Shown here one piece after another: positions 20,644 through 60,733 of a DNA stretch of 64,000 bases. Under the pieces are notes generated by a model. That model saw only the letters and a program-made list of their open reading frames with translations, ran no database searches and had not been told where the DNA came from. Each line of letters begins with the position of its first letter. The stretch's first letter is position 1. Origin of the DNA: Turnera subulata (lineage: Eukaryota; Streptophyta; Magnoliopsida; Malpighiales; Passifloraceae); contig JAKUCV010002023.1 of NCBI GenBank assembly GCA_028386065.3, positions 59,070 to 123,069 on the forward strand. The letters are read 5' to 3'. A program made the translations under genes and the position numbers.

Positions 20644-20701
20644 GATCTTGTCTCCTGGAGGTTAATCCACAGATGGAGATACCTTGCTCCGAACTCTATC
20701 T

Positions 20702-39834: not shown

Positions 39835-40144
39835 CTAATCTCTTATGTGAAGAAATAAGGAGTAGTAGCATACAGATTGCGGACAGAAAAAAGATGAGGA
39901 CAATTTTATCACAATCTGACAAGAAGAATGGATAGTGAGAGGTAGTGAGTGCAAAAGGTATGCCACTTATTGTCTTTAGCCCCCTAAAGTTACTAGAGTT
40001 TGATATTAACGTGTTTGGCCTCTAAACAATATAAAAGGGGAAGAGAGCACACACAATCACTTATACACACACACATTTACTTACTTTACTCTTTTGTTAT
40101 CCTTACTCTTTATATTTTTCTCTTGTCTCCTAAAATTTTTAAGA

Positions 40145-40343
40145 TGTTATAAAATAAAACGTGGATGTCCTATTACACCTAACCTCCCATTATAAATTCT
40201 GTAATGTTATTGTTGAGTATGACAGAAAAATATGAACCGAGTTCTTCCTGCACATTGTCTCATTCCTTCTTCCCTTCCTTCTCCTTCTCTTGCCCTTTTT
40301 TTCTTCTCTATATTCATGCCTTAAATTCACACAATTTATAACA
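40145..40343 (+). repeat. 5' LTR of copia copy 1
   Basis: 199 bp, TGTTATAAAATAAAACG...CACAATTTATAACA. The ends form a 9-bp inverted repeat (TGTTATAAA/TTTATAACA). Confidence 0.97.
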
Positions 40344-41640
40344 CGTTATCAGCACGATTTTCTCTACCCAAAGAAATGAAAAACCGAAAGAAAGGAAGAA
40401 GACGACCAAACAGTTCGTCACCTCAAAAGCTCCCTTCCCTCTGTTACTGTTCATCCGGACCCGACCGGCGCCGCCTCTCATCTCACCACAGCCACCGTCA
40501 GACGCGTCGCGCCGTCGCGAGCTTGACGCCGTCCTTCCCATCGGCTCCCGCCGCCTGACGCGTCGGCAGGAAGGAAAGACCCGACGTGGAAACCGGCGAC
40601 CCACTTCCTGCCGCCCGAGCCTGCACCGCCGTTGCCGCCCCCTACTGCCTCTGACGACCGCCGCCAAGCAGCACCGCGACTCATCCCTTGCATCGCGCCG
40701 CGCCTCCGACCACGCCCCGCCCGTCGTCACAGCCTGCAACTCGCCAAGGCTCGCGACCCGCGAGTTGGAGAAGAAGACCCGTACGGGTCGGGCCGATCCA
40801 ACGGGTTGCGGGCCAGAACTGATGGGCCTGCGCTTGTATAGTGTTCGGGCCGGTTTTTTTTTTCACAAAGTACGGGCCTGGGCTTGCACAGTACACAGAC
40901 CTGGGCCAGCATTGTGTAAGCCCAGTCCGTTAAAAAAAAACTGAAAAAAATAAAAAAAAATAAAAAGAAAAAAGAAAAAAAAGGGGGGATATGTACCAGA
41001 ACTCGGATTTACACTTTAGTCCCTGGAGTTCTCTTTTATGCAGGTAAGCTCTTACATTTTAGTCCTTCAATTATTAAAATTTCCGATTTTGTCCTAGATG
41101 AATTTATTATTGTTTAATTAATGATGTTATTGTGTGATTAAATGTTTAAATTAATATTGTTTTTGGATAATTAAATGTATTGTGAGCTCACGATGAGCCT
41201 CGGAGTAATGATTCGACACGGTGAATAGAAATTATCCGGACTGTGAATAGTAATTTCCGGCACCATGAATAGTAATTTCCGGCGACCGTGAATAGTGATT
41301 TTGGCAGGAAACCGGCAAACCCAGAAGTGTTTGGTCGGAATTTGAGACCTCGTGATTTTGATCGTGAATAGTAATTTTGACCGAAATCCGAACGCCTCGA
41401 ATTTTTCCCGGCGAACCCCGAAGTGTTGGTCGGAATTTTATACCTCGGTTATTTCCCGGCAGGTCCGGAAGGCGTGAATAGCTATTTTTCGGCGATCATG
41501 AATAGTAATTTTGACCAATCTGGCAACCGTGAATAGCGTTTTTGGCCGATCCGACGAACCCCGAAGTGTTTGATCGGAATCCGACGCCTTGGGTTTTTCC
41601 CCGCCGAGCCCAGAAGGCTAATGGCATATACATACCGGAA
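40344..41640 (+). other. GC-rich leader and (G)TGAATAGTAATTTTC repeats of copia copy 1
   Basis: 40376-40830 is a GC-rich patch with a 'ttactgttcatccggacccgac' start resembling Ty3 LTR leaders. 41219-41545 has about eight imperfect copies of 'cgtgaatagtaatttccggc'. No credible protein is present. The Arg-rich frames on both strands are compositional. Confidence 0.6.
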
Positions 41641-41732
41641 TAGTAACGGATATTAGTAATATATATTATATATATTATTGCTGAAAGATTTATCGAGTAA
41701 GCATATTTTTTTGTTTTTATTTAAATTCCGAT

Positions 41733-41983
41733 TGGGCTATTAAAGGGCCCACTGCATTTAAATTCATGCCTTTAATTTTATTTATGCTTTTATTTGGGCT
41801 CATAAAAGGCCCATAATGGCCGGCTAAGCCGCCTATTTCTTTACATTTTTAATTGGGCTCGTATAAGGCCCATCGCTTTTATTTTGCTGCAATTTAATTT
41901 TTTAGTGGGTTCGCTATAGGGCCCATTGTATTTAATTACCTTGCCTTTAATTTTATGCTTAATATGGGCTCGTACTAGGCCCA
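41733..41983. repeat. array of five TGGGCT...AGGCCCA inverted pairs
   Basis: Five degenerate units of about 60 bases, each with an inverted pair such as TGGGCTCGTATAAGGCCCA (41733-41751, 41795-41813, 41854-41872, 41906-41925, 41965-41983). TGGGCY is the plant Site II (TCP-factor) motif, so it may be regulatory. This is inference. Confidence 0.8.
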
Positions 41984-42535
41984 TCATTTAATTTTCTGTC
42001 ATTTATTTTTACTTGGGATAATTTATTATAGGCCCCTTCCTTATTTATTAAGCATTTACTTATTAAATTATGTTATTTGAATTTGAGGCTCTTAAAATTT
42101 CTGGAAGAAATTTATAATGGGCATTAAATGCGAAAATGCATTTAAATGAGAATAGTCTGAAAGACTAAATATAAGAGTCCAGAAGACTCGGGAAACGAAA
42201 AAAAACGAAGACTGGAAGCCTTACCGTTCAAAAGATCCTGAAGATCCTTTCAAAGAAAAATCGAAAATACACACTATTACCACCAGAAGATGGAAATTAT
42301 ATGACCACCAGAAGGTGGATATTATACTTGCTTACCCTGAAGGAGCAATTTATTTTATATTCAATTTATTTTCAGTTTAAATTATTACGCATTGCAATTT
42401 ATTTTTATTTACTTTTCAGTACTTTATAATTGTTTCTTAGAATAATGCCTGAAGCATTAGTCTCGACGACTATGCCAAATTGACATCCACAGGGGGAGAA
42501 TTATATGTGTGGATGTCAATATAACATATTATGAC

Positions 42536-42722
42536 ATCTCGAAATGAAAAATGATTAACACGCTCCAGAAGAGCATAAATGCGAATATGTTCCTGAAGAA
42601 CGCATGTTTTAATATGATCCAGAAGACCGTATAAATGAAAAATGATTAACACGCTCCAGAAGAGCATAAATTCGAATATGTTCCTGAAGAACGCATGTTT
42701 TAATATGATCCAGAAGACCCTA
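42536..42722 (+). repeat. tandem duplication of about 96 bp containing three mini-hairpins
   Basis: The unit contains GCTCCAGAAGAGC, GTTCCTGAAGAAC and GATCCAGAAGACC and occurs twice in a row with very few differences. It lies between the leader and the antisense gene. Confidence 0.9.
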
Positions 42723-42964
42723 TATTTACACGAGTATAGACACCCCAGTAATAAAATGAATTATTATGGATCCCAAATGAATTGACTCAGATTTATTCCC
42801 TGAAGCGAATAAGACAGTATAATTATTTGTGCCTGTGGGCATAAATGAGATAATAAATGGAAAAGGATCAAAGTAAACATGCATATTATTATTCCATAAA
42901 CGGATACATAACTGGAGAACATTCAAAGAAGAATGGTTCTCATACATATATTAAAACAAATAAT

Positions 42965-43648
42965 CTATCTGTTGGGTTCAACATTAACCCTAAAACTCTG
43001 AGCCTCACCATTAATGTTGACCCTAACACTGTCGTTCCAGGAGAACCACATACCACCCCTGTTGTTTTCTCCAGGTATCTCAAACCGATTCGTTGGAGGA
43101 AAACGAAGTGGAATCACACCATGATTCTCTCCTGCTTGCCATAGAGTCTCAGTAATCAATACCATGTTAGGCTTGTACTGATTCTTCAGATCCCTTAAGG
43201 TACGCACAAAGTCTTGAGACCTTCTTGCTATACCCCTGCAATTCCATAATAAAAGTCGTACCTTAGGCCATGTAGGTGGTAACCCAGTCACCCTTGGGAC
43301 GCTCCGAGCCATCATGGAAACCTGATAATAACTGCTTTCATTTAAAATTTGACATGAAGGCTCTAGCTGAAATTCCTGCATCCTCGCAGATATAAAAAAC
43401 ATTATAGAGTTAGCTGAGCCATAAAAATTTGTCCTGAGATTGCCTTGGTCCTCCAGGACGAAAGTTTCTTCCATTGGAGTCACAAAGAACCTAGACGAGT
43501 ATAGCTCATCTACAAATACTAAACGAGGAATTCTCGCCAGATCATTAGGCAGCTCCTCTTGTTGTTCATTTACCATGCTATAGGCCAATCTATTTCTTCT
43601 GCCTAGTGAGGCACCCTCAACAAAGAAAACAGTAGCTGGGGAAGGCAT
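42965..43648 (-). CDS. antisense ORF of the copia family, C-terminal LINE-type endonuclease-like segment
   Basis: An uninterrupted 227-codon frame antisense to the copia element. I chose the ATG at 43648 (MPSPATVFF), because the related copy at 56889 starts at the same place (MPFPTTVFF). An in-frame ATG at 43729 would add 27 basic residues. Residues 1-125 match nothing I know. Residues 130-225 (LLLWNCRG, Asn 137; NMVLITE, Glu 167; RGGMWFSWND) resemble the start of the endonuclease/exonuclease/phosphatase fold of plant LINE ORF2. The Asn and Glu are present, but the later Asp/His catalytic motifs are absent, so nuclease activity is unlikely. A TATA box lies about 100 bases upstream. Function unknown. 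The second copy shows mostly synonymous differences. Confidence 0.65.
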   Translation of the reverse strand: MPSPATVFFVEGASLGRRNRLAYSMVNEQQEELPNDLARIPRLVFVDELYSSRFFVTPMEETFVLEDQGNLRTNFYGSANSIMFFISARMQEFQLEPSCQILNESSYYQVSMMARSVPRVTGLPPTWPKVRLLLWNCRGIARRSQDFVRTLRDLKNQYKPNMVLITETLWQAGENHGVIPLRFPPTNRFEIPGENNRGGMWFSWNDSVRVNINGEAQSFRVNVEPNR

Positions 43649-43742
43649 TTTTTTGTCTTGGTTGAGTTTTTCTTTTTCTTTGCTTTGATGAATTTTTCTA
43701 TATCTATGAGTTTTCTTGTATCTTCCCATGTAATCCCTCCCC

Positions 43743-43750
43743 CATTTTAT
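43743..43750 (-). promoter_or_regulatory. TATA box upstream of the antisense ORF, copy 1
   Basis: Minus strand GCTATAAAATGGGGG, about 100 bases upstream of the ATG at 43648. The equivalent place in copy 2 has CTATATAAAGGGG. Confidence 0.55.
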
Positions 43751-44109
43751 AGCCTGAGCATAGATAGCCAGGTGTCCCCGAAAAGATCCAGAAGATTTTT
43801 CGGTGGATTATATTATTATTCAGCAAAATTCCAAAACTTTACAATCCTCGAGGATTTGCTTTTGGAAATGTCTGCCACTACATTAATTATTGCTCAATAA
43901 TTCCGATCTTTTCCGACATGAGTGGCAGAAATAAGTTTAAAATTGGCACATATATAGCTAGCCTGGGGCTAGCAGTTGAGTAATTGAAACTTAACATATC
44001 CAGCCAGAAGCTGGAATGCACTAGCCTGGAGCTAGCAATTTTAAATGTTTAGATACACAGCTTGCGCAGCCTGAAGCTGGCACCAACTTGAAGTTGGTTC
44101 ATGGATTTA

Positions 44110-46433
44110 TTGTTTGGCATGACCGGATGGGCCATCCCGGGTCAATAATAATGCACGAAATTTATTGGATCATTCATTAAAAAACCAGAAGTTTTACAAT
44201 CAATGAATTTCTATGAGTTTGTTTGCTGCGAAAGTTATTTTACGGCCTTCCTAAGATGAGAATGGCCTAGTATCAACAGCAAGTTTGAGAATAGTTCAGG
44301 GATATAAACGCGGACTGATAAATCCACAGTGTTAACCATCTAGGTAATTTTTACGATGCATCGACTAGATGGTCTATTGTGTGACGCAAGTTGGCATTGT
44401 GCGCACTTATTTTGAAGATTAAGCCACTTGCGGGTACATATCCCTACTTATGTTACTAGACTATACGTCTAGATAATGCTGGTATATTTCATCAATGGAG
44501 AATATATATCATTGGAAATAAACCCAAAGAGATCTGGGCCATATTGACAATTGATTGCAGGATCATTGATGAAATGTTACTGTTTGATAAAATGGTATTT
44601 TATATGCAGCAACACTTGAATGCATCAAGCCAACATGATCGGATCTCCCCTTTAATCGATTAATGGTCACATACTTAGTATCTCCCATCTTCGGACGATC
44701 GATTATATAGTATAAAAATTCTCCACCACAGCATTGTTTTGTTGGTCCTTAAAGAAGATTGGGAATATATGTTGTGTATGTTGGGTATGTTAATTTAATG
44801 TTAGAGTATTACCCAACATAAGGGGGAGGAAATAAGCAGCTGGATCAAGAAATTATTGAAATGACTTATCAATATTTAATTTTTGATCCTCGAATATTAG
44901 TATGAACCTGAAGTTCTAAGAAATGATTCATTTGCAAAAGATTAGTAAGTCATTTGCCAGACATATTTATTTGAAATATGTGACTATATACCAGCTGCAA
45001 ATGCTCCTGTTTTGATGTTCCTGAAGAACAATATAAGTATGCAAATGAATCCATATGGATTATACTCGGTTCCAAAAAGAAAAGAAATTCTCGATAAAGA
45101 AAAAGGAGCAAAAGTGATAAGATGGCCCCAGTGAGAAGATAAGACCTCCAGTAGAGGTTAGAATTAAAAGTCCTCCAGAAGAGGTTGATTCTCTGACACA
45201 ATTGATAAATTTCCAGAAGTAACTCAGGTACCTGAAATAAATGAGCATGATGAGATCTCAATTACAGTGTCAGGAATAAGATGGAACCGACGAGAAATAA
45301 CCGTCGACGGAATACTTGTTTATAATATAGCGCTAAATAAAATGAGGATCATGAACCTACATTTGACGAATGTAGGCGCAGTATGATTGGCCAAAATAGA
45401 GAAACATGATTAAAGGCTGTGTTGGACTCGCTCGAAGCGAGAAATTTCCGGACCTGTAGTCCATACACCAGAAGGTGTAAAATTCAACTGGTCATAAAAT
45501 GGAAATTTGTGTGGGAAAAGAATATGAGATATAAAGCACGGTTTATGGCACAAAGTTTTACCCAAATGACCAGGTACTAATTATGAGGAGTTTTACTCCC
45601 CTGTGGTGGATGCAATTATGTTAATAAGTCTGGCATCATATAAAATGAATTTGAAATGCATCTAGTAAATGCTATTATAGCCTATTTATTAATATGGATC
45701 CATAAGTCATGAAGATCCCTGAAGGATCCAAGTTGCCTGAAGCAACTAATTCCCGGGAAATTACAAAAAAAAAAAAATTGAGTTTAAATCATTTTGAGTT
45801 TGAATAAATTTGTATGTTTAGTGATTAGAATTCCAAAAGAGGTTTCCAAATACCGTGCTATTAGACTGGTCCTGGAGTACCCTGTCTAAGTGCAATGTGT
45901 ATTGCTTGTAACATAAAGCCTGAAGCTTTTGATATAAGCCTATTGGCAATATATGTATTTGCTCTTATCTTCGGGGAATAACAAATGTGTAATCCTGTAA
46001 ACCCGAAAGAGAGTATAGTTGATTTTTGTAGATGTAGATTCCTTATTTAGTCCACATAAAGCACAGACGGACATCAGCTACAATTTTACACATGATGTTG
46101 CTATATTATCGAGCCTACAAAAGCAAGATGGGAAGATAAACGTTCCAACGACAAAATTATGGAGATTATGCTGCCAACTCTGTCTAATTGAAGTTATGAT
46201 GTAACAAAAATGATCAGACAAAACACACGTCACCAGAAGCTGACAAGGACGATTGGGATGCAATAATATCAAGCAATCAATGGAGGCCAAAATGAGGGGG
46301 AGTAGAATACGCACTGCACTCTTTTTTCCTTCACCAAGTTTTTATCCCACTGGGTTTTTCTTGGTAAGGTTTTTAATGAGGCAGTTCTTCCTAAACGTAT
46401 TCTACCCAGTGTAAAATGACATCCAAGGGGGAG
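44110..46433 (+). pseudogene. degenerate copia pol of copy 1
   Basis: Sense-strand pieces in normal order. The GAG-pre-integrase motif VWHDRMGHPGS lies at about 44116. Integrase fragments continue to about 44800. The pre-RT linker with PPVEVRIKSPPEEVDS lies at about 45145-45195. The RT N-terminus follows: SARFEARN-like at 45430, TPEG at 45468, YEEFYSPVVDA at about 45583-45615 and IPEGSKLPEATNSRE at about 45713-45760. Then comes a gap where the YVDD palm should be, a C-terminal RNase H piece (LQKQDGKINV at about 46110-46140), and the tail. Many stops. The RT core loss is shared with copy 2. Confidence 0.85.
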
Positions 46434-46632
46434 TGTTATAAAATAAAACGTGGATGTCCTATTACACCTAACCTCCCATTATAAATTCTGTAATGTTATT
46501 GTTGAGTATGACAGAAAAATATGAACCGAGTTCTTCTTGCACATTGTCTCATTCCTTCTTCCCTTCCTTCTCCTTCTCTTGCCCTTTTTTTCTTCTCTAT
46601 ATTCATGCCTTAAATTCACACAATTTATAACA
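46434..46632 (+). repeat. 3' LTR of copia copy 1
   Basis: 199 bp, one C/T difference from the 5' LTR (position 46535 region). Followed by the duplicated TAAGA. Confidence 0.97.
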
Positions 46633-46637
46633 TAAGA

Positions 46638-47840
46638 GTAGTTTTAGCTAGTTTTTTCTCTCTCTCTTTTTTTTTTTCACATCCCACGGGCAAGATTATT
46701 ACATATTTCGAGCACCGGCGCCATAACTCACCAAGGTTGTACAGCATCTCTTCCATACTTGTAATACCTTCGGCCCACCATACAAGGCTAAAGGCTACTC
46801 TGCTCGACCTACACACCGAGTTTCTATAATAAAGTTATCGTCTTTAGCCCCAAAATTCGAATCTTTACGTGCGAAATCGAGTTTTATTTAGTCATTAAGC
46901 CCAACATAAGGAACGTGAAACATCGCCCCCCAAAGCGAACTTAATCTTGGATTTGATAAATAGAGGATTGCTTGACTATTACCTTAAAAGGGCCAAGATC
47001 AAGTTTTTTTAGGGAACAGATAAAGTTTTAAAAGGTCCACATTTTGTCATAAACATATAAGTTTAATCTGGTAAATAATGTGGAGGCTATTGAATGAATG
47101 TAGATATGTGGAAGGGCAGCTTTTTCTTGGTTAAAAAATAAATCATTCTTTGAAGAAAAAAAGAGAAGTTATTGAATATACTAAATAGGAACTTGAAGTT
47201 AAATGTGGGCCTTCACATTTTTTTTGGTCGAAACCGGGATGTATATTAAGAATATACTCGAGCATGATACATGGTTAGAAGTCGGTGGCTCACTCCGACT
47301 CCTATCTTTTAAAAGAAAACTCGTGCAGACAATAAGTTACAAAGTATAAACATAATGAACCTGGCTAATCTAATCAAGCAATCCAAACAAGAAGTCATGT
47401 CCAAACAATGCTTCATGGGAATCTAATCTTGTGACTTATGACTTAATGCGTCTGCGCTATCAGATTTGGAGGTCTGCTCTTTTTTAAAAAATAAAAAAAT
47501 CAAGATCTGTAGGTCTGATTTCCTATCGGATCCTTCTCTCATTTTGCAATTACTACTTGTCCGTCGGATCTTCTCAGAGTTATTTGCAATTAGTTCCAGA
47601 TGATGCGACTGATCCGATGTTTGTTTCAGTTGGTTTCGTTTCTTTCGAGTTTCAGAATACGATATAAAGAAAATGAGCTTTAAGTCGGAGTGAATTATTG
47701 TCCTAAACTCCTAAAATCCCAGATTGGTTTAAGGTTGATAAACTTATCGCAAAGAGAAAGAAAAAACAATAGTACGATACAAGCCAATTCCGTTCGAATT
47801 AAGCCCAAATTTGCGGAGATTTCGGAGCTAACCTCCAAAT
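46638..47840. other. intergenic DNA upstream of the GT34 gene
   Basis: No gene seen. 47217-47410, read on the minus strand, ends 'aatatacatcccggtttcgacc' plus an A run. That resembles the 3' tail of a LINE-type insertion, but no target duplication was found. Confidence 0.4.
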
Positions 47841-47847
47841 CCAAGCC

Positions 47848-47856
47848 ATATATAAA
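47848..47856 (+). promoter_or_regulatory. candidate TATA box of the GT34 gene
   Basis: CATATATAAAC about 640 bases before the start codon. A pyrimidine-rich stretch (48185-48245) in the inferred leader is common in plant 5' UTRs. Inference. Confidence 0.4.
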
Positions 47857-48494
47857 CTAAATCAAAAGTGTCGGTCGCGCTCACGTGTAATAATCAACGT
47901 GTCACTGCCTTCCTACAAACACCTAAAAAACCCCAATGTACAGAGACCAAAGGACCCACACTACCGTACTTCACGCCCATATCCGCTCCCTTAACCATAA
48001 CCAGCGCCCCCTTCCCCCTCGCGCACTTTAGCCTCCACGGCGCCACGAAACCGACGCATCGCTTTATTCACTCCCCCCACCTCACTCCAGTAACCAGTCA
48101 ACACCCGTCTTCCTCGCCTCAAACTGTGTCGTATGTAAACACTATCCCCCTCGCCCTCCCTTAGTAGTTTAGTTTTCTGTTTAGCTTTTTTTTTTTTTTT
48201 TTCCACTTTTGTCAGTTGTCACTCTCTCCCCCTCTCTTACCCTCGGCGTAGCAACAAACCCACAAAATCCAAACCGATAGCAAAATTGGGAACTCTATCT
48301 GTCCCTCTCCCCCCACATTAACTCACAAATTTTGAGATTTAATAAAATTTTTGGCATTGTATTAAAGTCCCAAACTTTTGCGCTCTTCCTTTTGGAAACA
48401 ACACATCTAACATACCATTACTGTCCAAACTCCAAACTACAAAACCCACACACACATAGAAACCTGGCTCCCCATTTTGGTACTTCAAATTAAG

Positions 48495-49886
48495 ATGGTC
48501 ATCCCAACAGAGCTCTCCAAGTCTCATCACTACTCCACCGCCCCCATGCCAACCAAACCCAACTTCCGAATCAGACACTTCTCTTGCTTCGCCGACGGCT
48601 TCCTCTACCTCGGCGGAGCATGCCTCGGCTTTCTGCTCGTCTGGTCCCTCTGGTCACTCGCCGGCTCCACCCTCACCCACACCTTCGACCCCGCCTCCGC
48701 CGTCAGGGCCGCCGCCAGCTCCGGCTCACAGAAATGCGTGCAGGAAAACCCCGCGGTTGATTTGCGGTACGACCCTCCGGAGCCCACCTTCTACGACGAC
48801 CCGGAGCTGAGCTACTCCCTGGGGAGGCCCATCAAGAACTGGGACGAGAAGAGGAAGGAGTGGCTGAAGCAGCACCCCTCGTTCGCGGCCGGGGCGCGGG
48901 ACAGGGTGGTGATGGTCACCGGGTCACAGACGAAGCCCTGCAAGAACCACATGGGGGATCACCTCCTGTTGCGGTTCTTCAAGAACAAGGTGGACTACTG
49001 CAGGATCCACGGGTATGACATCTTCTACAACAACGTCCTGCTCCACCCCAACATGCCCAGTTACTGGGCCAAGCTACCCGTCGTAAAGGCCGCCATGCTG
49101 GCCCACCCGGAGGCAGAGTGGATCTGGTGGGTCGACTCCGACGCGGCGTTCACCGACATGGAGTTCAAGCTCCCCCTGAGGAGGTACGATTACAAGAACC
49201 ACAACCTCGTCGTCCACGGGTGGGCCCGGCTCATCTACGAGGACAAGAGCTGGACGGCCTTGAACGCCGGCGTTTTCCTGATCAGGAACTGCCAGTGGTC
49301 CATGGACTTCATGGACACGTGGGCCAAGATGGGGCCCATGAGCCCCGATTACCCCAAGTGGGGCCAGATCCAACGGTCGGTATTCAAGGACAAGCTGTTC
49401 CCGGAATCAGACGACCAGTCGGCGCTGATATATCTGTTGTACAAGGACAGGGGCCTGATGGACAAGATTTATCTGGAGGGCGGGTATTATTTCGAGGGGT
49501 ACTGGGTGGAGATACTCCCGACGTACGACAACATCACCGAGAAGTACACGGAGATCGAGAGGGAGGACGGCAAGCTGCGGAGGCGGCACGCCGAGAAAGT
49601 GAGCGAGCAATACGCTGCGTTTAGGGAGCCACACCTGAAGGAGGCGGGTAACGCGAAGGGGAGCTGGAGACGGCCGTTCATCACGCACTTCACGGGGTGT
49701 CAGCCGTGCAGCGGGGACCACAACCAGATGTACGGCGGGGACACGTGTTGGAACGGGATGGTGAAGGCCTTGAATTTCGCGGATAATCAGGTGCTCCGGA
49801 AGTATGGGTTTGTGCGCCCGGATCTACTGGATTCCAACACCGTCAACGAGACGCCGTTCGATTATCCCGAGGAGGGGCCTTGGTGA
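48495..49886 (+). CDS. GT34 family glycosyltransferase (galactomannan galactosyltransferase / AtGT6-GT7-like)
   Basis: A single exon of 463 codons. The protein is a Golgi type II membrane enzyme: a short cytosolic tail, one membrane helix at about residues 36-56 (LYLGGACLGFLLVWSLW), a stem, then a GT34 catalytic domain. The metal-binding DxD motif is D214-S-D216 in WIWWVDSDAAF. Other family blocks are VMVTGSQ, GDHLLLRFFKNKVDYCR, LNAGVFLIRNCQWS, ESDDQSALIYLLY, FEGYW and HFTGCQPCSGDH. GT34 members transfer galactose to mannan or xylose to xyloglucan. These blocks and the short stem fit the galactomannan galactosyltransferase-like (GT6/GT7) branch better than the xyloglucan xylosyltransferases, but substrate cannot be settled from sequence. 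The ATG at 48495 (MVIPTE) is preferred over the in-frame one at 48477 by family comparison. Third positions are very GC-rich, unlike the surroundings. Confidence 0.95.
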   Translation: MVIPTELSKSHHYSTAPMPTKPNFRIRHFSCFADGFLYLGGACLGFLLVWSLWSLAGSTLTHTFDPASAVRAAASSGSQKCVQENPAVDLRYDPPEPTFYDDPELSYSLGRPIKNWDEKRKEWLKQHPSFAAGARDRVVMVTGSQTKPCKNHMGDHLLLRFFKNKVDYCRIHGYDIFYNNVLLHPNMPSYWAKLPVVKAAMLAHPEAEWIWWVDSDAAFTDMEFKLPLRRYDYKNHNLVVHGWARLIYEDKSWTALNAGVFLIRNCQWSMDFMDTWAKMGPMSPDYPKWGQIQRSVFKDKLFPESDDQSALIYLLYKDRGLMDKIYLEGGYYFEGYWVEILPTYDNITEKYTEIEREDGKLRRRHAEKVSEQYAAFREPHLKEAGNAKGSWRRPFITHFTGCQPCSGDHNQMYGGDTCWNGMVKALNFADNQVLRKYGFVRPDLLDSNTVNETPFDYPEEGPW

Positions 49887-52800
49887 AAAAAAGAGATCAT
49901 CCCGGATAACAAACAAAAAAAAAAAAGGTAAGTTAGGGTGTGGCGGACTTTGTTAGTACTTGGTGGTAAATTTCTTGTATCGTATAGAGTAAATTGATCT
50001 AAAGAAGTGAAAAAAAAAAAAGAAGAGTAAATTATACTACATCAGTCAGTATGTATGTAAATGAAGGTGCTGCGCCCAGAATTTTGCGGGAAAAGAATAT
50101 TTAATAACAGTAAGGGTATTCTTTTTTCTTAACAAGGGTTTTGGTTCCACTCCACTTTGGTTGCTTTTTCGCTTTGGATTATCGAATGGTGTTACTCTTT
50201 TTCTGCTTTTGGACTTTTACTTTTATGGGCCACCATAATTTAATTTATTGAGTGGTAGTAAGGTACTGGCATTTGGGGCCTTCAAGAATGCATGATTGGA
50301 GGATGATGTTTCATGCATGGGAGCCGTTGTCTGACGAGAGATGAGAGATAATTTTGCTGCGGGCCCTGGATTATGGTTGAACTTAAAAGAGTTTACAGCA
50401 CTTGTCAGAGTGGGCACGTGTCTGATTTTAGACTTCTTAGTAGGTGGAGAAGAAATCATGTTACTCTACTGTTCAAAAGAAAGAAAATTCTTTGGGGATT
50501 GCTCGCTCATCTCCTCCGGTGGCAGATATTGCATTTTTCTCCTCTGTGCCTAACCATCTGCAATAATTTTATTATTATGTTAAAACTTAACTAATAAAAT
50601 TATTTTGAGTTATTTACACACATTGGACGAAGTAGAGCAAATTCATACTAGATGTATTGAGAAGAGGTATAGACTGTAGAGACAGCTATGATTCAACCAG
50701 GGTACTGCGGGGTTATCTGCAGGATGAGTTCCGGTTTCAGTTGCAAAAAAGAAGAGAAGAGAAGAGGTGTTGGAAAAAAAAAAAGGGGGTGTACAAAGGT
50801 GATGAAATCTAGATATATATTATGGGTCAATGTCTCGGCATTACCTTCGGCTTGTGATTCTGTTCTTATTTGAATTTCCTCTTTTCTACTTTAGGCAAAA
50901 ATCTTAGTTTTCTGTTGTGTGCACTCACACTTTGAATCCCTACAGAAATCTGAAACTCTGTTGCATATCATCCAACTAGTAACAAGATTTCTATTTCCTT
51001 GTGATGTAATTAGTTTTGGTTTTGAGATTCAAAATGTTTTGAAAGGCCAAAGAGTCTTGGATGGCTTCGGAAGTAAAAATTTCAAGTAAAGGTGATAGAC
51101 ACTGGTTTTTGTTAGCAGGCAGCTAGAGAAAAAGATGGATCATCACATAAATGAAATATATTTGCAGTCAGTGTCTTCACCGGTGACGTCTGTGTTACTA
51201 AAAATTTATCACTCTTTAGTTAACCACTAACTTTATCATATAATTCTCCATCCTCAATGAGATAAGCTATCTTTTTTTAGCCCCAAATCCTGAATGTTTG
51301 TGTCACGTTGTATATAGTATTGGTGTTAAGTAGCTTAAATTGCATTTCGGATTTGCATAGATTAACACATCTGTAAGCGCATCTAAGTTACTTTAAGTCT
51401 GCATCAATGTAATGATTTATGAGATACAAGATGTATGATGTTTGAATGTTAAGTAGCTAAAGGCAGTATTGTGACTGGTACTAGAATAGTATTTTTCTGG
51501 GTTTGTCGTAATAGAATAGTTGTGTTGTGAAGCCTCCTGAGCAATTTTAGGGTGTGAGCTTAAAGTATAAGTCTACAGTGCTAATGATGCATCTTTTTCT
51601 TCAGTGCGCAGAGTGGAGTGCTTCAAGTCATCCATTCTGGTGCCCATAGCTGCCAGTTTTCTTGTTCATGTTCATCGGCATGGGCGCTCCAATATCTTCA
51701 TCTAGTGTGCCAAGAGTCACTCATAACTAGCACAGATATACCCTGTCCATATTTTAGTTGCAGATCATTCGTCCATGTTTTATTCTTTGCTTAATTTTCG
51801 AGTTCTAAATGTTACCTTGTACATTTTTGTCTTCACAAGAACTGGCTGGCTGGTTGGCTTGCTTGCTTTTCCAAATGTAAATCTAGCAACAGCCATATAT
51901 AAAGTTTCACCTGCTTAGGGGTATTATGCCATCATCTTACTGAAAACATAAATCTTTCAATTTCAAAGTTTGTTGATCTGATCATACTGGAGTTGTGTGG
52001 GACCAATAATTTGTGATACAGGCACTTTTGAGAACCAGGAAGCAAGTGGTAAATCATGTAATGACCTTGGAGACTTTTTGTGCTTCTGGTGTATCCACTT
52101 TTGGTGGAAAATGACATCGAATTTCACACGGCTTTGTCAATAACTGGAACTGAATGGAACACGGCGTTTTGTGCAACTGGAATTTATGGTTGTGGCTCCT
52201 CTATGTATGCTTGATTAGATTTAATTCTTTCTAGCCCTCGTAGCGGGCGGAACCACAAACAAGGTTGGTTCCGAAAAATTACATGACCATTACTTGATAA
52301 CGATCTAGGGGAGATACATCGCCGAAGCTTTACATTCCAAACGCTTGTGGATCATCAATGCTGCAATTACACTTTAAAGCAGAAAAATCCAAAACCAACT
52401 AACATTAGGTGCAACCGTAAGCTTATTTCATTTTCCTCAAAATCCAAAGTTCTGAAAAATATGCAGCATTTCCCTTAAGACTCTAAAATACAGGTTTTAA
52501 GTAATGGTAAAAACTGCGGAATTTGTGTTGTTGGTAATGATCCCACCTTGTAAACCACGGAGAGGGATGAGTTAATCTGTTAGTTATAGGATACTCTTCT
52601 TTGTATACTCTTCTAGTATAAAATGCAAAAAAATCCAGAACGATCCATCATTGAAAGCCATAAGATTTCTTAACCAAAAAGAAGAAAGCCACATACTTTC
52701 ATAGATTTTTGTAACATCATAAGAAGGGATTCCTTTGATGAGTGAAAGTTGGATGTTAAAGAGAAAAAAAATGAAAAGTTAGATGGTAAAGAAAAAAGAA

Positions 52801-53754
52801 GAAGACAACCGCAAGGTTTGTACCAGTCATGCCGGTACAGCCGTTTTCATGCCGAGGTTTTATGCAGAACTTTGTGCTTTCTACGGTCATACATTTATGC
52901 ATTGTAACAAGCTAGATAAGATTGACTGTTCGACCAGCCCAAATGCTTAAGTATTAATGAGTTAGGCTATGAGTTGATGCTACATATAAGCTTAAAGAAC
53001 TCCTTATTTTGTTTCTAATTCTTTTTTGTTGATCGATTATTTTGCTTCTGTTTTTGTGGAACTAGGAGTACAATATTGTCGGTGATGCTCATTATTTGAG
53101 TGATGCTTTACTGAAGTATACTAATATTTCTTTTTGCCAAAACTTAAGCTAACAGTTTTATGTTTGAATGAAGTATGTACTCCTCTTTTTTTTTTTTCGG
53201 TTGAAGATGTACTTTGACAATGGGTCATGACAAATTGACAATGGATGAATGCAATATTAAGGCTAAATCACCAATTTTTTGTCTATTTTCCTTATAAAAT
53301 TTTTTTAATGTACAATCTTGGGGATACAATTTTAACGAAGAGAAATTTTTTCCTCCTTTTGAAGAAATGACATCAAAATAGAGTCTGCTCTCCTTTGCTT
53401 TTTCTCGACACAAAGTAGCGCTCTGTTAGTAAATAAACTGCGACAATTCTTTTGTATCAAGAGTTGAACACATCTAAAAATCTTACTATTTCTCATTATG
53501 AGTATGCTTTAGGAGAGTAACAGTTAAATTATTAAATTTAATTATTATTTGTGGAAAAGACATATACACTATAATAATATATTAAAAAAAAACTTTCTCC
53601 CAAAATGGAGAGGATCGTAGTTTTTGGTGTATGTTATTAGCTACATTTGGGCTTTCGAACAAATGGTAGAGAGACGAATCCTCGCGCACAGGAGACGACC
53701 CGGTGTGGGCCCGGTTTAGTTAAAATCTGAAAAAGCACAACACAATTTGATTAC
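49887..53754. other. intergenic DNA, no gene recognised
   Basis: Downstream of the GT34 gene. Small frames (50223-50594, 51932-52117, 53225-53413) have no recognisable domains. 52850-52920 has a CxxxGHxxxxC-like string that could be a decayed zinc knuckle, but it is too short to call. Confidence 0.5.
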
Positions 53755-53943
53755 TGTTATAAATATACATGTTTAAGTAGATAAAATTTGATTGGTAATG
53801 GAGGAGAGGGAGAGGAAGAAAAGGAAGAAGATGAAGAAGTGAGCAGCCAAAGAGGAGCTCGGCTTCGTTATATTTTATTTCTTTACTGATGAGCATATAT
53901 ATAATATAAGGTTAGGTACAATAGTTTCACACGTTTTATAACA
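53755..53943 (-). repeat. 3' LTR of copia copy 2
   Basis: 189 bp. On the minus strand it starts TGTTATAAAACGTGTG at 53943 and ends TTTATAACA at 53755. Only the ends resemble the LTR of copy 1, so it is a different subfamily. The outer flank is ATTAC. No partner LTR exists in the window. Confidence 0.8.
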
Positions 53944-56700
53944 CTCCCCCTTGAATACTGTTGTATTTTAGGTAGAATATGCTTTTTTGGGACAACTGCC
54001 TCATTAAAAATCTTACCAAGAAAAATCCAGTGGGATAAAAACTTGGTGAAGGGAAAAAGAGTGCAGTGCGTATTCTACTCCCCCTCATTTTGGCCTCTCT
54101 TGATTTCTTGATGACGTTGCATACCAATTATCCTTGTCAACTTCTGGTGACGTATGCTTTGTCCTATCACTTTTGATACATCACTACCTTAATTGGGCAA
54201 TATAGGCATCATTATCTTCATAATTCTGGAGCATCTTCCTTGCCCTCTTGCTTTTGTGGTCCCGATGATATAGCAATTTTCACGTGTAAAGAAGTAGCAG
54301 ATGTCCATCTGTGCTTTATGTGGATCAAATAAAGGACCTGCATCTGCAAAACCAACTATATACTCTTCGGGTTTACAAGGTTAACATAATAACACATCTG
54401 TTATACCCCGAAGATAAGAGCAAAGTTATATCTTGCCAATAGGCTTAAGTCAAAAGCTTCAGGCTTTATGTTACTAGCAATATAAATTGCACTTTGATAG
54501 GATTCTCTAGGACCAATCTAATTTTTGATGAGATTTTTCATCTCAAAACCTTTCTTGAAACATTGCATTTGGAGACTTCTTCAGGAGTTCCAATTTAAAC
54601 ACAAAAATACATATAGATATGAATTATCAACATAAGCAATAATAATTTATGCATACTCAAAATGATTTAAATCATGTAATAATCAATTTAGCTTAATTTT
54701 ATATATATTCCCGGGAATTAGTTGCTTCAAGCAACTTGAATCCTTCAGGGATTCTCATGCATATGTCATGACTTATGGATCTGTAAAAATAGGCTGTAAT
54801 TGCATCCATTAGATGCATTTCTAATTCTTTCATATAATGCCAGACTTATCAAAAATAATTGCATCCACCACAGGGGAGTATATCTCCTCACAATTAATAC
54901 CAGGTTATTTGGGTAGAACATTGTGCTACAAATCGTATTTTGTGCGACAAGCCGTGCTTTCCCCCTTTTTTGCACAAGCACCCATTTATACTCGACCGGT
55001 TTTATACCATTGTTATACCGACTACAGGTCCGAAAAATTCTTCGCTTCCCAAGCGAGTCTTACACAGCCTCAATTATATCTCTATATATTTTGGCCAATC
55101 ATTCTGCGCCTACATTCATCAATAGATGTAGGTTCATGATCCTCATTTTCTTTCATAATTTTTAGCGCTATATAAAATAAATATTCCTTCGACGGTTATT
55201 TCACGTTGGTTCCATCTTATTCTTGACACTGAATAATTAATCGAGATCTCGTCATTTTCATGTGTTTCTTCTGGAACTTTATCAGTTGTGTCAGAAATCT
55301 CTTCTGGAGGGTTTTCCTCTTCTTGAGGATTTTTAATTTGAACCTCTACTGGAAGCCTTATTTTCTCACTGGGGGCATCTTATTTCTTTGCTCATTTTTC
55401 TCTATCGAGAATTTTTATTTTCTTTTGGAACCGAGTATATTCTACGCTTCTTGCATACTTTAGATTCATTTGCATACTATACTTGTTCTTCTAGAACATT
55501 AATTTTAACAGGAGCATTTGTAGCTGATATATAAGATTTGGTCACTTTATGTGTCTGGCAATTTCATATCAATTTTTCTGCAAATGAATCATCTTTTGAA
55601 CTTCAGGTTCACACTAATTTGTTTGAGGATCAACAATCATATATTGATAACGCATTTCAATAATATCTTGATCCAACTGCTTATTTCCTCCCCTTTATGT
55701 TGGGTAAACTCTTTCATTTAATTAATAACCAACATACCCAACATATATTCCCATTCTTCTTTTAAGGACTAATTCTATTATGCTGTGGTGGAGCATTAGG
55801 TACATATACTGTACAGTCAATGGTCCAAAGATGGGTTCGTGATCATGAACCAATTAAATGGGGAGATCTTATGATAACTTGTTGGCTTGATACACACAAG
55901 TGTTGCTGCATGTAAAATTCTCAAATAGCAATAGCAATGGTCTTGCAATCAATTGGAAATATTCATTGAACGATTCACCCAGATCGTTTTAGGTGTGAAC
56001 ATAAGCTACATGATGTTCAACCATTATTTCCAACAATATACATTAACCATTGAAGGAATACACCTGTATTATCTAGACATATAGTCTTTGTAACATAATT
56101 AGAGATGTGTACCTGCAAGTGGCTTAATCATTAAAATAAGTGCGCACAATGCCAACTTGCATCACAAAATAGACTATCTAGCCGATGCATCGATTAAAAT
56201 CATAAAAATTACCTAGATGGTCAACACGGCAGATTTATTAGTCCAGCGTACATGTCCCTGAATTATTTCCAAACTTGCTGGTGATTCTAGGCCAGCCTCT
56301 TCTTAGGAAGGCCGAACAATTAATTTCGCAGCAAACAAACACGTGGAAATTCATTGATTGTAAAAACTTCTGGTTTTTTAATGAATGACCAAATAAATTT
56401 TGTGCATCATTTTTGATCCGGGATGGCCCAACCGGCCATGCCAAACAATAAATCCGAGAACCAACTTCAAATTGATGCCAGCTTCAGGCTGCGCAAACTG
56501 TGTATTTAAACACTTAAAATTGCTAGCTTCAAGCTAGTGCATTCCAACTTCTGGCTGGATATGGTAAGTTTCAATTACTCAATTGCTAGCTTGAGGCTGC
56601 TATATATGTGCCAGCTTCAGGCTGCTATACATGTGTCAATTTTAGGCTTATGTCTGCCACTCATGTCGAAAAGATCAGAATCATTGAGCAATAATCAATG
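53944..56700 (-). pseudogene. degenerate copia pol of copy 2
   Basis: Read on the minus strand, 56480-56230 holds the GAG-pre-integrase and zinc-binding part (MAWPVGPSRIKN region, HSLKNQKFLQSMNFHVFVC). Integrase and linker remnants continue to about 55200. The RT N-terminus lies at 54990-54700 (ARLVAQN, IPEGFKLLEATNS-like). The YVDD region is absent, as in copy 1. The C-terminal RNase H tail is at 54330-54060, and the frame MRGSRIRTALFFPSPS at 54085 matches 46290-46400. Many stops. Confidence 0.8.
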
Positions 56701-56827
56701 TAATGGCAAATTTTTCAAAAAAGCATAATCCTTGAAGATTAAAACACTTTTGGAGTTTTGTGAAAAATAATACATATTTCTAATCACTAAAAATCTTCTG
56801 GATCTTTTCGAAGACGGAAGGCTCAGA

Positions 56828-56837
56828 CTATATAAAG
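56828..56837 (+). promoter_or_regulatory. TATA box upstream of the antisense ORF, copy 2
   Basis: ACTATATAAAGGGG, 59 bases before the ATG at 56889. Equivalent in position to the box at 43743-43750. Confidence 0.55.
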
Positions 56838-57913
56838 GGGGGAAGATATGTGGTGGAAACATATAGAAAATCATCAACAAGATAAAACATGCCTTTCCCG
56901 ACTACTGTCTTTTTTTGTTGAGGTGCCTCTCTAGGAAGAAGGAATAGACTAGCATAGAGTATGGTAAATGAACAGCAAGAGGAATTACCGAGTGAGCTCG
57001 CAAGAATTCCTCGTTTAGTTTTTGTTGATGAGCTTTACTCATCTAGGTTCTTTGTGACTCTTATGGAAGAAACTTTCTTCCTTGAGGACCAAGGCAATCT
57101 AAGAGCTTCCTTTTATGGCTCAGCTAACTCTATTATGTTTTTCATGTCTGATAGAATGCAGGAATTCACTACCAATTTCTAGCCTCTTTCTTTGGGCAGC
57201 TTCCCGTAAGCAATTGGTAAGGAAAATAGGTTTTCTTACCTATTCGTTACGAAATCCTTACGGGAAAAACGTTCCTTTCCGTATGCTTTCCGTTTCCTTA
57301 CGGGGACCATCCGTAAGCAAAACGTTCGTAAGTAAATTCTCACCCGTAAGGATTTTGTAAGGAAACTGTTAGAAAGGTTTCCTTACGGCTTTTGCCCGTA
57401 AGGAAACGGTAAGTGTTCCTTAACAAAACAATCAGTGGGCCCCATTCGTGGACAAATGTTTCCGTAAGGAAACGTTAAGGAATTGGTAAGGAAAAAACTT
57501 TACTTACAATCCTCTTTCATAACAAAACCCTAAGCATTCCGTAAGTAAAAACAAATAAATTAAAAAAAAAATTGCATCAAACAAAACCCAGAAACATGAA
57601 TATTGAACCCAGAAACTAAAATAGAATAAATTCAAACCTTCAACATCTTAATTAATCAAAGTGAACATAGAATCTGACATTGTTAAAATCAGTATGAAAT
57701 TCTCAGACACTACAATTTAGCACCAAATTCAATGCCTTAACAATAGAAAAAAAAGCTACAAATACAACATAATAATGCTGGTGAGAACCGGAAGACTTGT
57801 TCTTCAAAGTAGGACTAGGTGGAGGACAACTTGGCAATGGAAAAGAGTTGGTAAAACTGACGTTTGTTGGTTGATCATTCAATTGTGCATATGGGAAAAG
57901 AGGAGCCAAGAAC

Positions 57914-58040
57914 CTACTCATGACCACAAAGGATGTGTGCATAAGCAACTCTTGAATTCAGTAGGACTGCTCTCTGAAAAATTTTCAGTGCTGTTTCATG
58001 GTCTTGCTGCAAACTATAGCAGTTTCCCATATCACACCTG
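57914..58040 (-). pseudogene. CDC27: CDC27 (APC3) TPR exon fragment
   Basis: Encodes MGNCYSLQQDHETALKIF, then QRAVLLNSRVAYAHILCGHE, ending in a stop at 57914. This matches the C-terminal tetratricopeptide repeats of plant CDC27/APC3, a scaffold subunit of the anaphase-promoting complex. An acceptor-like CATGCAG precedes it. A captured fragment rather than a gene. Confidence 0.85.
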
Positions 58041-58426
58041 CATGTTCATTCAACACAGCAGCATGAAAAAAAAAAATAAAACAGTGAAAAAAACCAAAGA
58101 TGCTGATTCTTGAGCCAAGTAATTTAACTTCATGTCTTCCATCAGATGCTATAAAATATACAAAGTGGCAACAGAGACAAACTACAATGGAAGAAAAGAA
58201 GCAATCTTATTTCCATTAATTATTATTTCTTAGACTCTATGTCACTACAAAAGTGAGGATATAGTATGTGCTAATAATGTGAGTAACAGTTGAAAGTAAC
58301 ATAAAACAAACAACTCTAAAGTTATAAGGTAAAACTGAAATGTAGACTTGCATCAATCTCAAGCAAAAAAAACAGCTAGCACGTTTTCAAATTGACGATA
58401 TAAAAACTGGGAGAAAGATGCACAAC

Positions 58427-58473
58427 CTGTAGATAAGCCCAAGAATGTAATGCCCAGGTGCTCCATTTGGAAC
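58427..58473 (-). pseudogene. CDC27: CDC27 (APC3) exon fragment
   Basis: A 47-nt exon with intact AG...GT borders encoding VPNGAPGHYILGLIYR, a conserved N-terminal segment of plant CDC27. Confidence 0.85.
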
Positions 58474-58711
58474 CTGCAGAGAGAGGACAGGAAGTGAAAA
58501 AATAAAATTTCATTCCAAGAATTATTTCAGCACACAGAAAACTGAAAACCAGAAACAACTTTAATAGTGGAAAAATTTGCCTAATTCGGCAAGAAATTCA
58601 GGTCTTATAGGTACAAACTTAAAATGAGGACAAAAATATGGCTCTCTTTTTGGTAATAAATACTATTACAAATATAAGAAACATTCTTCACATAAAGAAC
58701 CACACTCATAC

Positions 58712-58822
58712 CTCTGATGTAGTCTCATTAGCAGGAGATAATGCAACTTTGGCTTCATTCAGAAGATCCATTTGAAAGGACGATATTGCAAACAAGTAGC
58801 GGGATTGAGCCCATTTGTGTTC
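58712..58822 (-). pseudogene. CDC27: CDC27 (APC3) exon fragment
   Basis: A 111-nt exon with plausible borders (TTGAAG|GAACAC and CAGAG|GTATGAG) encoding HKWAQSRYLFAISSFQMDLL, then NEAKVALSPANETTSE, followed in CDC27 by the VPNGAPGHY exon as seen here. The order of the three CDC27 pieces matches the gene, with the middle lost. Confidence 0.85.
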
Positions 58823-59095
58823 CTTCAAATAATAATGAACAGAGAAGAGGAAAGATTTATGAATAAACAGAAAAACAAGTCAATTTGATGGGCTTTCCAT
58901 TTCCATGCCCAAATCATCAATAATTAAGAGGATGTCGTATCCAATATCGTCGACAGTTACAGTTGATCTAAAAGGTTTCTCTTAATGCATGGTTGCCAAT
59001 AGCAATGCCTCCAATGCAATAGAATTAGCAATAACCTTTATTCAAATGCATGCTAGAGAATAGAGGCACTGCAGTAACATCGAAATCCTAACCTA

Positions 59096-59183
59096 GCTAC
59101 GAAGCTCATCATGTATGGTAAGCCTGACACCACCAAGTCTCTGCACACTTGCACTAAGCTCATCCAACTCTTCATCTTGTTGC
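59096..59183 (-). pseudogene. SYP61: SYP61-like syntaxin exon fragment
   Basis: Encodes QQDEELDELSASVQRLGG, then VRLTIHDELR, the start of the SNARE helix of plant SYP61-type syntaxins (trans-Golgi Qc-SNARE). An acceptor-like CATAG lies upstream. It lies 5' to the CDC27 pieces on the same strand. Confidence 0.8.
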
Positions 59184-60733
59184 CTATGTACAAACACAAA
59201 ACTAAGCACAGAACAAGAGATATATCTGTGATGTACTTTTATAAGGAAAGGAAAGAAAAAGAAAATCATGATGTACTTTATAAGAAGCATCTGTCTATCT
59301 GATTCTGATTGGATAAAATCATCAGAGTCATTGTACTGATTGGATATAAGAAAAAATTAATTGTTGATTAAGAAAAAATTAATTTTTCTTTCTTGTCTGC
59401 TGGTCAAAAGAAAACCAATAAAACACAAAAGGAATTATATTCTGCATGGAACGCTTGATTACCAATTGAATGATCAACAAGCTTAATTGGTCATGCCACC
59501 ACTGAACTATATAAAGCTTCAAAAGCAGAAGATCAACAGTGATGAATTAAATTAAAAAGGGAGGGATAGATAGAAAAGATAGCAAGCAATAACACTCCTT
59601 TGTACTCTCCCAAAGAAGACTATATGAAGAATGAATGAAACAGCTAATACTGGTTTCTATTATTTTCTCTTTGCTACAAACACTCATCACTTTTAAAAGG
59701 TAAACTATAACTTTAGGGAGCCAACCATATCAGCTGGACCAGGACATTCCTTTTACTATGACTAAGAAAAGTTCCCAGCTAATATTCCAACTAGATCCTA
59801 CTTGTCAAATATTGAATCAAAGCAGTTATTATCAGGTTTCCATGATGGCTCGGAGCATTCCAAGAGTGTCAGGGTTACCACCTACATGGCCTAAGATACG
59901 ACTATTACTATGGAATTGTAGGAGTGTAGCTAGAAGGTCGCAAGATTTTGTGCGTACCTTAAGGGATCTGAAGAATCAGTGTAAGCCCAACATGGTACTG
60001 ATTACTGAAACCTTGTGGCAACCTGCAGAGAACCATAGGATAATTCCACTCCGTTTTCCTCCAACAAATCGGTTTGAGATACCTGGAGAAAATAACATGG
60101 GTGGTATGTGGTTTTCCTGGAACGACAATATTGGGGTCAACATCAACAACGAGGCTCAGAGTTTTAGAGTCAATGTTGTACCCAACAGATAAATAATTAT
60201 TTCAACTTTTGTATAAGAATAGTTCCTCTATGTGGATGTTCTCAAGTAATGGATCCATTTTGCAATAATATGCATGTTTTCCCTTAGCTTTGCCATTATA
60301 ACCTCATTCACGGCCACAGGCACAATTAATTTTACTGTCTTATTCGCTTCAGGGAATAGAGCAGAGTAAATTCAACAGGATCCACAATAATTTTTTTTAT
60401 TACTGCAAGTGGGGGTTTCTGTACTCTTCAAGAGTATTTACTCTTCCAGAGCGTAAATATATGATCTTCTAGATCATAGTAAAGCTTGCGTTTTTCGGGA
60501 ACATATTCAAACTTATGCTCTTTTGGAGCGTATTATCCTTTTTCTCATTACGAGATTGTACTATCACATGTAATGTGAAATAGTTGACATCCACACATAT
60601 AACTCTCCCCCTTGGATGTCAATTTGCATTGTCTTCATGACAAAGTGAATACCTGACCCAAAATCACTTGGGCCTATTCACCTTTCCTTTACACCTTCTT
60701 CATAACCGTCATCCAACATCTTTGGAGTCGCCA

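What the first reader, a model, noticed from the sequence alone, without database searches (positions are those of the whole stretch)
40145..60640. A non-autonomous copia family that keeps one intact gene, in antisense
Two diverged, oppositely oriented copies (40145-46632 and 53755-60640) both lack the RT catalytic core and have decayed pol, yet both carry the same antisense reading frame at the same internal place. In copy 1 it is open for 227 codons. The rest of the element is riddled with stops, so an open frame is unexpected unless it was maintained. Antisense extra genes are known in some plant LTR elements (for example Tat-lineage Grande). I know of none with this protein in a copia family, but I could not search.
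Basis: partly seen in the sequence, partly recalled or inferred. Interest (0 to 1): 0.88.

Follow-up and report, generated by a model that had tools for sequence, protein, structure and literature searches.

The report
One-gene antisense copia retrotransposon family
A plant-type jumping-gene family that has lost the core of its copying enzyme still keeps one gene, written backwards inside it and containing a piece of another jumping gene's DNA-cutting enzyme; its changes show that natural selection preserved this protein, which would likely help the family spread with borrowed machinery.

Summary
Copy 1 (40145-46632) is a young LTR element (1 mismatch in 199-bp LTRs) without an RT core. Antisense, at 42965-43648, lies a 227-codon frame. 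Of 58 other copies from the same genome, picked by flanking sequence, 24 keep it intact and 34 do not; 138 scored places encode it. Omega is 0.30 in frame against 0.95-1.81 in shifted frames and flanks; 24 pol-remnant controls give 0.71-1.43. Copy 1 against copy 2: dN/dS 0.10 at dS 0.66. Short indels are 10-12 times rarer than in the flanks. Constraint lies mostly on internal branches; tips are closer to neutral, as for a gene needed by source elements that decays after insertion. All 40 places scored for the 3' pol stretch run contiguously across the missing RT core, so the family multiplied without its own RT while this frame was conserved. A CTATA block lies 60-108 nt before the ATG. Residues 133-219 match the first 85 of 217 positions of the endonuclease domain of the genome's LINEs; the first 132 residues have no relative found. 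Most likely it is an accessory gene helping the family exploit another copia's machinery (inferred).

The parts
40145..40343 (+). 5' LTR of copy 1 (TGTTATAA...TTATAACA)
   Evidence: 99.5% identical to the 3' LTR
46434..46632 (+). 3' LTR of copy 1
   Evidence: TAAGA duplication at 40140-40144 and 46633-46637
40344..40357 (+). primer-binding-site candidate CGTTATCAGCACGA, shared by other family members
   Evidence: directly after the 5' LTR; the exact motif or its complement next to an LTR in 8 of 20 fetched loci, a near match in a ninth (L019)
46425..46433 (+). polypurine tract AAGGGGGAG before the 3' LTR
   Evidence: sequence; similar tracts
42965..43648 (-). conserved antisense gene, 227 codons plus stop
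42992..43252 (-). part of the frame (residues 133-219) homologous to the first 85 positions of the LINE EEP endonuclease domain
   Evidence: 44-bit match to a profile from 20 LINEs of the same genome; best of 2000 shuffles 6.9 bits
43746..43751 (-). candidate TATA box (TATAAA), 103 nt upstream of the antisense ATG
   Evidence: CTATA block at 60-108 nt in 37 of 38 rows
44025..44177 (+). trace of the GAG-pre-integrase domain
   Evidence: PF13976 E 0.0052 here and 0.00054 in copy 2, both below the curated cut-off
45410..45804 (+). broken pieces that look like the start of a copia RT; the catalytic core is missing
   Evidence: pieces, read by eye; RVT_2 positions 75-106 only, E 0.17, in copy 2; 40 of 40 scored places contiguous here, copy 1 included
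53755..53943 (-). LTR-like end of copy 2 (3' LTR in its orientation)
   Evidence: sequence and adjacent polypurine tract
56889..57166 (+). copy 2, N-terminal part of the same frame, with two stops
57167..59783 (.). nested insert of about 2.6 kb that splits the frame in copy 2
59784..60192 (+). copy 2, C-terminal part of the same frame, open

Best explanation
A family of copia-like LTR retrotransposons without an RT core carries one protein gene, antisense to its broken pol, that stayed under purifying selection while the family multiplied, and that likely helps the element spread with gag-pol proteins supplied by another family. Shown: the frame, its selection, the shared RT loss in the places scored, recent LTR pairs, and homology of its last third to the N-terminal part of LINE endonuclease domains. 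Inferred: the gene is predicted to be read from its own antisense promoter (CTATA block, A-rich leader, ATG); the protein is predicted to be a nucleic-acid-binding, catalytically dead endonuclease piece, since it keeps the WN motif and the glutamate of ITET but lacks the rest of the domain; it would act mainly on the element that encodes it, or that element's RNA, because otherwise broken copies would be propagated as well as intact ones.
For: Omega 0.303 in frame (36 rows) against 1.306 and 1.813 in the shifted frames and 0.947 and 1.376 in the flanks (29 and 31 rows); 0.265 with 50 rows. On 20 rows, 0.408 in frame against 0.706-1.426 in all six frames of four 600-bp pol blocks, 24 values. 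NG86 copy 1 against copy 2: dS 0.655, dN 0.068; copy 1 against L076: dS 0.785, dN 0.060. Indels under 60 bp: 1.07 per kb in the frame, 13.15 and 10.82 per kb in the flanks. Changes on internal branches by codon position 1/2/3: 37/16/123; on tips without copy 2, L076 and L086: 97/86/141, with them 120/101/213. RT core absent in 40 of 40 scored places. LTR pairs 86-99% identical in the 10 of 20 loci where a pair was found. EEP homology. CTATA block in 37 of 38 rows.
Against: No RNA or protein evidence. 34 of 58 sampled copies are not intact, and some inner stops recur in several copies. No helper element was identified: the two longer elements with a similar LTR that were opened are the same family with nested inserts. 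Tip branches still show a third-position excess (97/86/141). The sense frame that shares third positions with the gene also gives a low omega (0.427), as a mirror effect would; it holds 11 stops in copy 1, so it is not the coding frame. Loss of gag was not tested beyond two open frames without a Pfam match. The structure model is useless (pLDDT 32), so binding and nuclear action are guesses.
Confidence: 0.72

Rival explanations
1. An autonomous, unsampled sister element carries gag-pol plus this antisense gene; selection acts there, and the RT-less copies are its by-products.
For: Only the best 40 candidates per DNA search are scored and only a fraction of the family was read; a copia with gag and RT must exist somewhere to move this family.
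Against: 40 of 40 scored places share the same contiguous stretch across the missing RT core, which points to one loss before the radiation; constraint sits on branches inside the RT-less tree while the pol pieces of 20 of the same copies give omega 0.706-1.426; the two longer elements with a similar LTR that were opened show the same layout with nested inserts and no long pol frame.
Confidence: 0.15
2. A host gene, or a gene useful to the host, that hitch-hikes in the element; selection is for the plant, not for the element.
For: The unit looks gene-like: candidate TATA box, leader, ATG, stop. Captured genes are known in plant LTR elements (PMC7264820, part 1 read).
Against: 138 scored places encode it at 83-100% identity, which is a transposon pattern; tip branches decay. 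No single conserved locus stood out, but distant host homologues cannot be seen behind the family in a search that scores only the best places.
Confidence: 0.08
3. The open frame is an accident of recent expansion, with conservation caused by gene conversion or by a DNA or RNA signal, not by a protein.
For: Intact copies of sample 1 differ from copy 1 by only 1.6-4.7% in the frame; one non-coding window (43845-44145) has a phase chi-square of 5.2 on distinct changes, within the 4.1-10.3 of the frame windows.
Against: Third-position excess (218/78/559 at positions 1/2/3), omega near 0.3-0.4 against 0.7-1.8 in control frames and blocks (the mirror sense frame apart), an unchanged length of 227 codons in L076 at 15% divergence, and 10-12 times more short indels in the flanks directly beside the frame. 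Gene conversion does not favour third positions.
Confidence: 0.03

Closest known systems
Antisense additional ORFs of plant LTR elements (Grande gene23, RIRE2, Retand, PvRetro13), review PMC7264820 (parts 1 and 2 of 3 read)
   Same: A conserved ORF antisense to gag-pol in many copies; for Grande, a promoter of its own and a nuclear protein are reported there; function unknown.
   Different: Those named lie between pol and the 3' LTR (Grande and Retand are Gypsy elements; for Grande recalled); the review reports no similarity to other TEs for such ORFs. Here the element is copia-like, RT-less, the gene lies upstream of the integrase/RT traces, and part of it is a LINE endonuclease piece.
Retand TRP28 ORFs (PMC11963269, abstract and passages seen)
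   Same: Antisense ORFs in the great majority of clusters; some elements are non-autonomous.
   Different: Gypsy, pol-3'LTR region, TRP28 domain; P0002 has no Pfam match.
Bdelloid rotifer ORF3 genes (PMC5408684, abstract and passages seen)
   Same: Extra ORFs in LTR elements of kinds also found in other retroelement types (GDSL esterase, DEDDy exonuclease).
   Different: Animal elements; other enzymes than this truncated EEP; I saw no antisense placement in the passages shown.
Orchid Gypsy with an AlkB m6A demethylase ORF (PMC9289625, abstract and screen section read)
   Same: A plant LTR element that acquired a functional extra domain.
   Different: Gypsy, 25 kb. That screen of 121 genomes used RT as its marker and found 15 extra domains, all in Gypsy-type elements, at its n5 filter; an RT-less family would escape it.
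Non-autonomous LTR elements that keep one gene (TR-GAG, BARE-2; recalled; TR-GAG seen only as a search term with its listing)
   Same: Mobilised in trans while retaining a single gene (recalled).
   Different: The retained gene of TR-GAG is sense gag (recalled); here it is an antisense accessory gene.

Membership tests
LTR retrotransposon | LTR pair TG..CA, target duplication, PBS, PPT | tested here: met
   Copy 1; LTR-like pairs in 10 of 20 fetched loci
Ty1/copia | copia-type pol domains in order PR-INT-RT-RH | tested here: inconclusive
   3 of 10 pieces sent matched: GAG-pre-integrase E 0.0052 and 0.00054, RVT_2 E 0.17, all below curated cut-offs; the rest is by eye from recalled motifs
non-autonomous family | no RT catalytic core in the copies that multiplied | tested here: met
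   40 of 40 scored places contiguous across the gap; recent LTR pairs
antisense aORF-3R (Grande/Retand type) | conserved ORF antisense to gag-pol | tested here: met
antisense aORF-3R (Grande/Retand type) | position between pol and 3' LTR | tested here: not met
   The frame (42965-43648) lies before the GAG-pre-integrase and RT traces (44025-45804)
antisense aORF-3R (Grande/Retand type) | own antisense promoter | not testable with these tools
   Only a candidate TATA block
Retand TRP28 protein | PF04195 domain | tested here: not met
   No Pfam family at E up to 10
LINE EEP endonuclease | homology to the domain | tested here: met
   44 bits over domain positions 1-85 of 217; shuffles at most 6.9 bits
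LINE EEP endonuclease | complete domain with all catalytic residues | tested here: not met
   The frame ends after about 40% of the domain; N136 and E167 are invariant in 13 of 13 aligned rows, the later part is absent (residue roles recalled)

The most novel reading that the evidence does not exclude
This is a retrotransposon satellite: an element that shed gag and pol and lives by a single antisense gene, a LINE-endonuclease-derived protein with its own promoter that commandeers another copia family's particles or integration complex for its own RNA or DNA, as a satellite virus does with its helper.
Probability: 0.3. Interest if true: 0.88.

Novelty: new variant of a known kind. Interest (0 to 1): 0.74.

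Why it matters
Purifying selection on a protein of an element that cannot copy itself means that the protein should favour its own element, which turns the open question of what antisense genes in plant retrotransposons do into a direct test: here there is no working pol to confuse the signal. It also shows a LINE domain recruited into an LTR element and kept after truncation, and a kind of conserved transposon gene that RT-anchored surveys would miss.

Tried and rejected
Homology searches with the frame: Pfam no hit, PDB nothing meaningful, 5.8 billion proteins none at E 0.01 or at E 1 with a 13-row alignment. Single-sequence structure prediction: pLDDT 32, not used. The N-terminal 140 residues against the upstream DNA of four LINEs and two other EEP loci: no meaningful match. 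Autonomous partner by LTR: 41 matches, 40 candidates scored of 224; the two longer LTR-bounded ones opened are the same family with nested inserts; a third long one (C6922) was not read. First indel and codon counts on 20 loci were replaced by the larger set. The phase scan was weaker than I first took it: one window outside the frame (43845-44145) reaches chi-square 5.2; the codon-model control was run for that reason. The EEP resemblance was first a recalled lead; it became a result only. Literature searches; their listings show no copia with such a gene, but most subscription papers are not held.
Full report
What is there. Copy 1 is a complete LTR element by its ends: LTRs 40145-40343 and 46434-46632 with one mismatch in 199 bases, a TAAGA duplication, a primer-binding-site candidate at 40344 and a purine tract before the 3' LTR. 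Between them I found no intact sense gene. Pol survives as short pieces: of 10 pieces sent to Pfam three matched, two as GAG-pre-integrase (E 0.0052; 0.00054 in copy 2) and one as RT start (RVT_2 positions 75-106 of 244, E 0.17, copy 2), all below curated cut-offs; the copia assignment of the other pieces is by eye. Two open frames of the 5' region have no Pfam match, so loss of gag is likely but was not tested further. On the opposite strand, 42965-43648, is a frame of 227 codons from ATG. Copy 2 has the same frame in the same place, broken by two stops and an insert of about 2.6 kb.

Is it a family? A 1-kb pol-side query (44000-45000), which starts about 350 bp outside the frame, finds 41 matches at 40 scored places, copy 1 included, among 2791 candidates. 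The protein query finds 138 scored matches, copy 1 included, among 8301 candidates, at 83-100% identity; by my count 65 of those 138 rows show no stop over the aligned part. That list favours good copies, and it also counts stops upstream of the ATG. Counts from these searches are lower bounds.

How many keep the frame? Sample 1 is the 39 places other than copy 1: one has no match, 36 keep some of the frame, 15 keep all of it with start, stop, no indel and no inner stop. Sample 2 was chosen by a query 1.75 kb away (45400-46300, 40 places with copy 1): I asked for 20 of the other 39 and received 19, none of them in sample 1; 14 carry the frame, 8 intact by script, plus L076, which direct translation shows to be 227 residues long without a break. 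Together 24 of 58 are intact and 34 are not. Of 24 inner stops, 21 are C-to-T or G-to-A against copy 1, as decay of methylated DNA would give; some recur, at residue 157 in four copies and at 94 and 204 in three each, so they may be repeated hits or inherited breaks.

Is it selected? In the codon model omega is 0.303 for the frame on 36 rows; the same letters in the two shifted frames give 1.306 and 1.813, and the flanks give 0.947 and 1.376. Four of the 40 possible rows were dropped for low coverage. With omega fixed at 1 (and kappa at 2, so not strictly nested) the log-likelihood falls from -2984.9 to -3042.8. With 14 rows of sample 2 added (L078, flanks only, dropped) omega is 0.265. Both parts of the protein are constrained: 0.340 for residues 1-132 and 0.261 for 133-227. 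As a control, 20 rows give 0.408 for the frame and 0.706-1.426 for all six frames of four 600-bp blocks of the pol remnant, 24 values; the one other low value, 0.427, is the sense frame that shares the gene's third positions, and it holds 11 stops in copy 1. NG86 dN/dS is 0.104 for copy 1 against copy 2 and 0.076 for copy 1 against L076. Short indels are 1.07 per kb in the frame and 13.15 and 10.82 per kb in the flanks. A scan of codon phase along the element on 20 loci is strongest inside the frame (chi-square up to 10.3 on distinct changes), but the scan alone is not clean: a window just outside, 43845-44145, reaches 5.2.

When was it selected? Mapped on the tree, changes on internal branches fall 37/16/123 on codon positions 1/2/3; on tips they fall 97/86/141 without the three most diverged rows and 120/101/213 with them. 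On the 36-row tree the internal counts were 22/12/72. So the gene was constrained in the source lineages and decays, not quite neutrally, after insertion. The 40 places scored all run contiguously across the place of the missing RT core, so those source lineages had most likely already lost RT. LTR-like pairs were found in 10 of 20 fetched loci, 86-99% identical. The LTR sequences differ strongly between subfamilies: with standard blastn at E 1e-5 only the window's own copy matched the copy 1 LTR among the first 28 loci, and the genome search lists other copies at 74-99% identity.

What is the protein? A database of proteins from public genomes and metagenomes, Pfam and PDB give nothing. A profile from the EEP endonuclease domains of 20 LINEs of the same genome matches residues 133-219 with 44 bits over its positions 1-85 of 217; best single BLASTP 36.6% over 82 residues; 2000 shuffles reach at most 6.9 bits, and 13 of 13 family proteins score 38.6-45.6 bits. 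The domain is cut after about two fifths, so N136 and E167 remain (invariant in 13 of 13 rows) but the later catalytic residues are gone (roles recalled). It is therefore predicted to be inactive as a nuclease. Residues 1-132 have no relative found; they are not the LINE's own upstream sequence in the four LINEs tested.

How would it be expressed? Upstream of the ATG a block with CTATA, in three main variants (TATAAAA, TATAAGAA, TATATAAA), stands 60-108 nt away in 37 of 38 rows; the exception, L021, has lost its 5' part. The leader between block and ATG varies in length. This looks like a core promoter and 5' leader; it is not shown by RNA.

Mechanism and rivals. The best reading is an accessory gene that benefits its own element. 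Because RT is absent, the element must be copied by another family; a protein under selection in such an element should act preferentially on its own RNA or DNA. What it does (packaging, nuclear entry, integration, shielding from silencing) is open; I favour binding of nucleic acid, from the EEP ancestry.

Known or new. Antisense extra genes in plant LTR elements are known (PMC7264820, parts 1 and 2 of 3 read; PMC11963269, abstract and passages); those named there lie between pol and the 3' LTR. A screen of 121 angiosperm genomes anchored on RT found its 15 extra domains only in Gypsy-type elements (PMC9289625, abstract and screen section read). Bdelloid LTR elements share kinds of extra ORFs with other retroelements (PMC5408684, abstract and passages). 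The listings of my searches show no copia with such a gene. I file this as a new variant of a known kind.

Noticed in passing
window 48411-49886 (+): 491-codon open frame with a glycosyltransferase family 34 domain (PF05637, E 1.2e-61), lying between the two element copies.
   Followed up: no
window 57167-59783: The insert that splits the frame in copy 2 is about 2.6 kb and begins with GTAAGGAA-rich sequence; it was not classified.
   Followed up: no
window 13511-14486 and 20691-21677: A direct repeat of about 990 bp, 95.8% identical, possibly the LTRs of another element.
   Followed up: no
window 38136-38825 (+) and 28-672 (-): Aspartyl-protease and integrase zinc-binding domains of other LTR elements.
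   Followed up: no
window 32435-33094 (+): Haemolysin-III-related domain (PF03006, E 2.6e-54), apparently a host gene exon.
   Followed up: no
L009-L028, element ends: LTR sequences differ strongly between subfamilies although much of the internal region is 85-95% alike, which suggests fast LTR turnover or exchange.
   Followed up: partly
window 41200-41620: Degenerate tandem GTGAATAGTAATTT-type repeats in the 5' internal region of copy 1.
   Followed up: no
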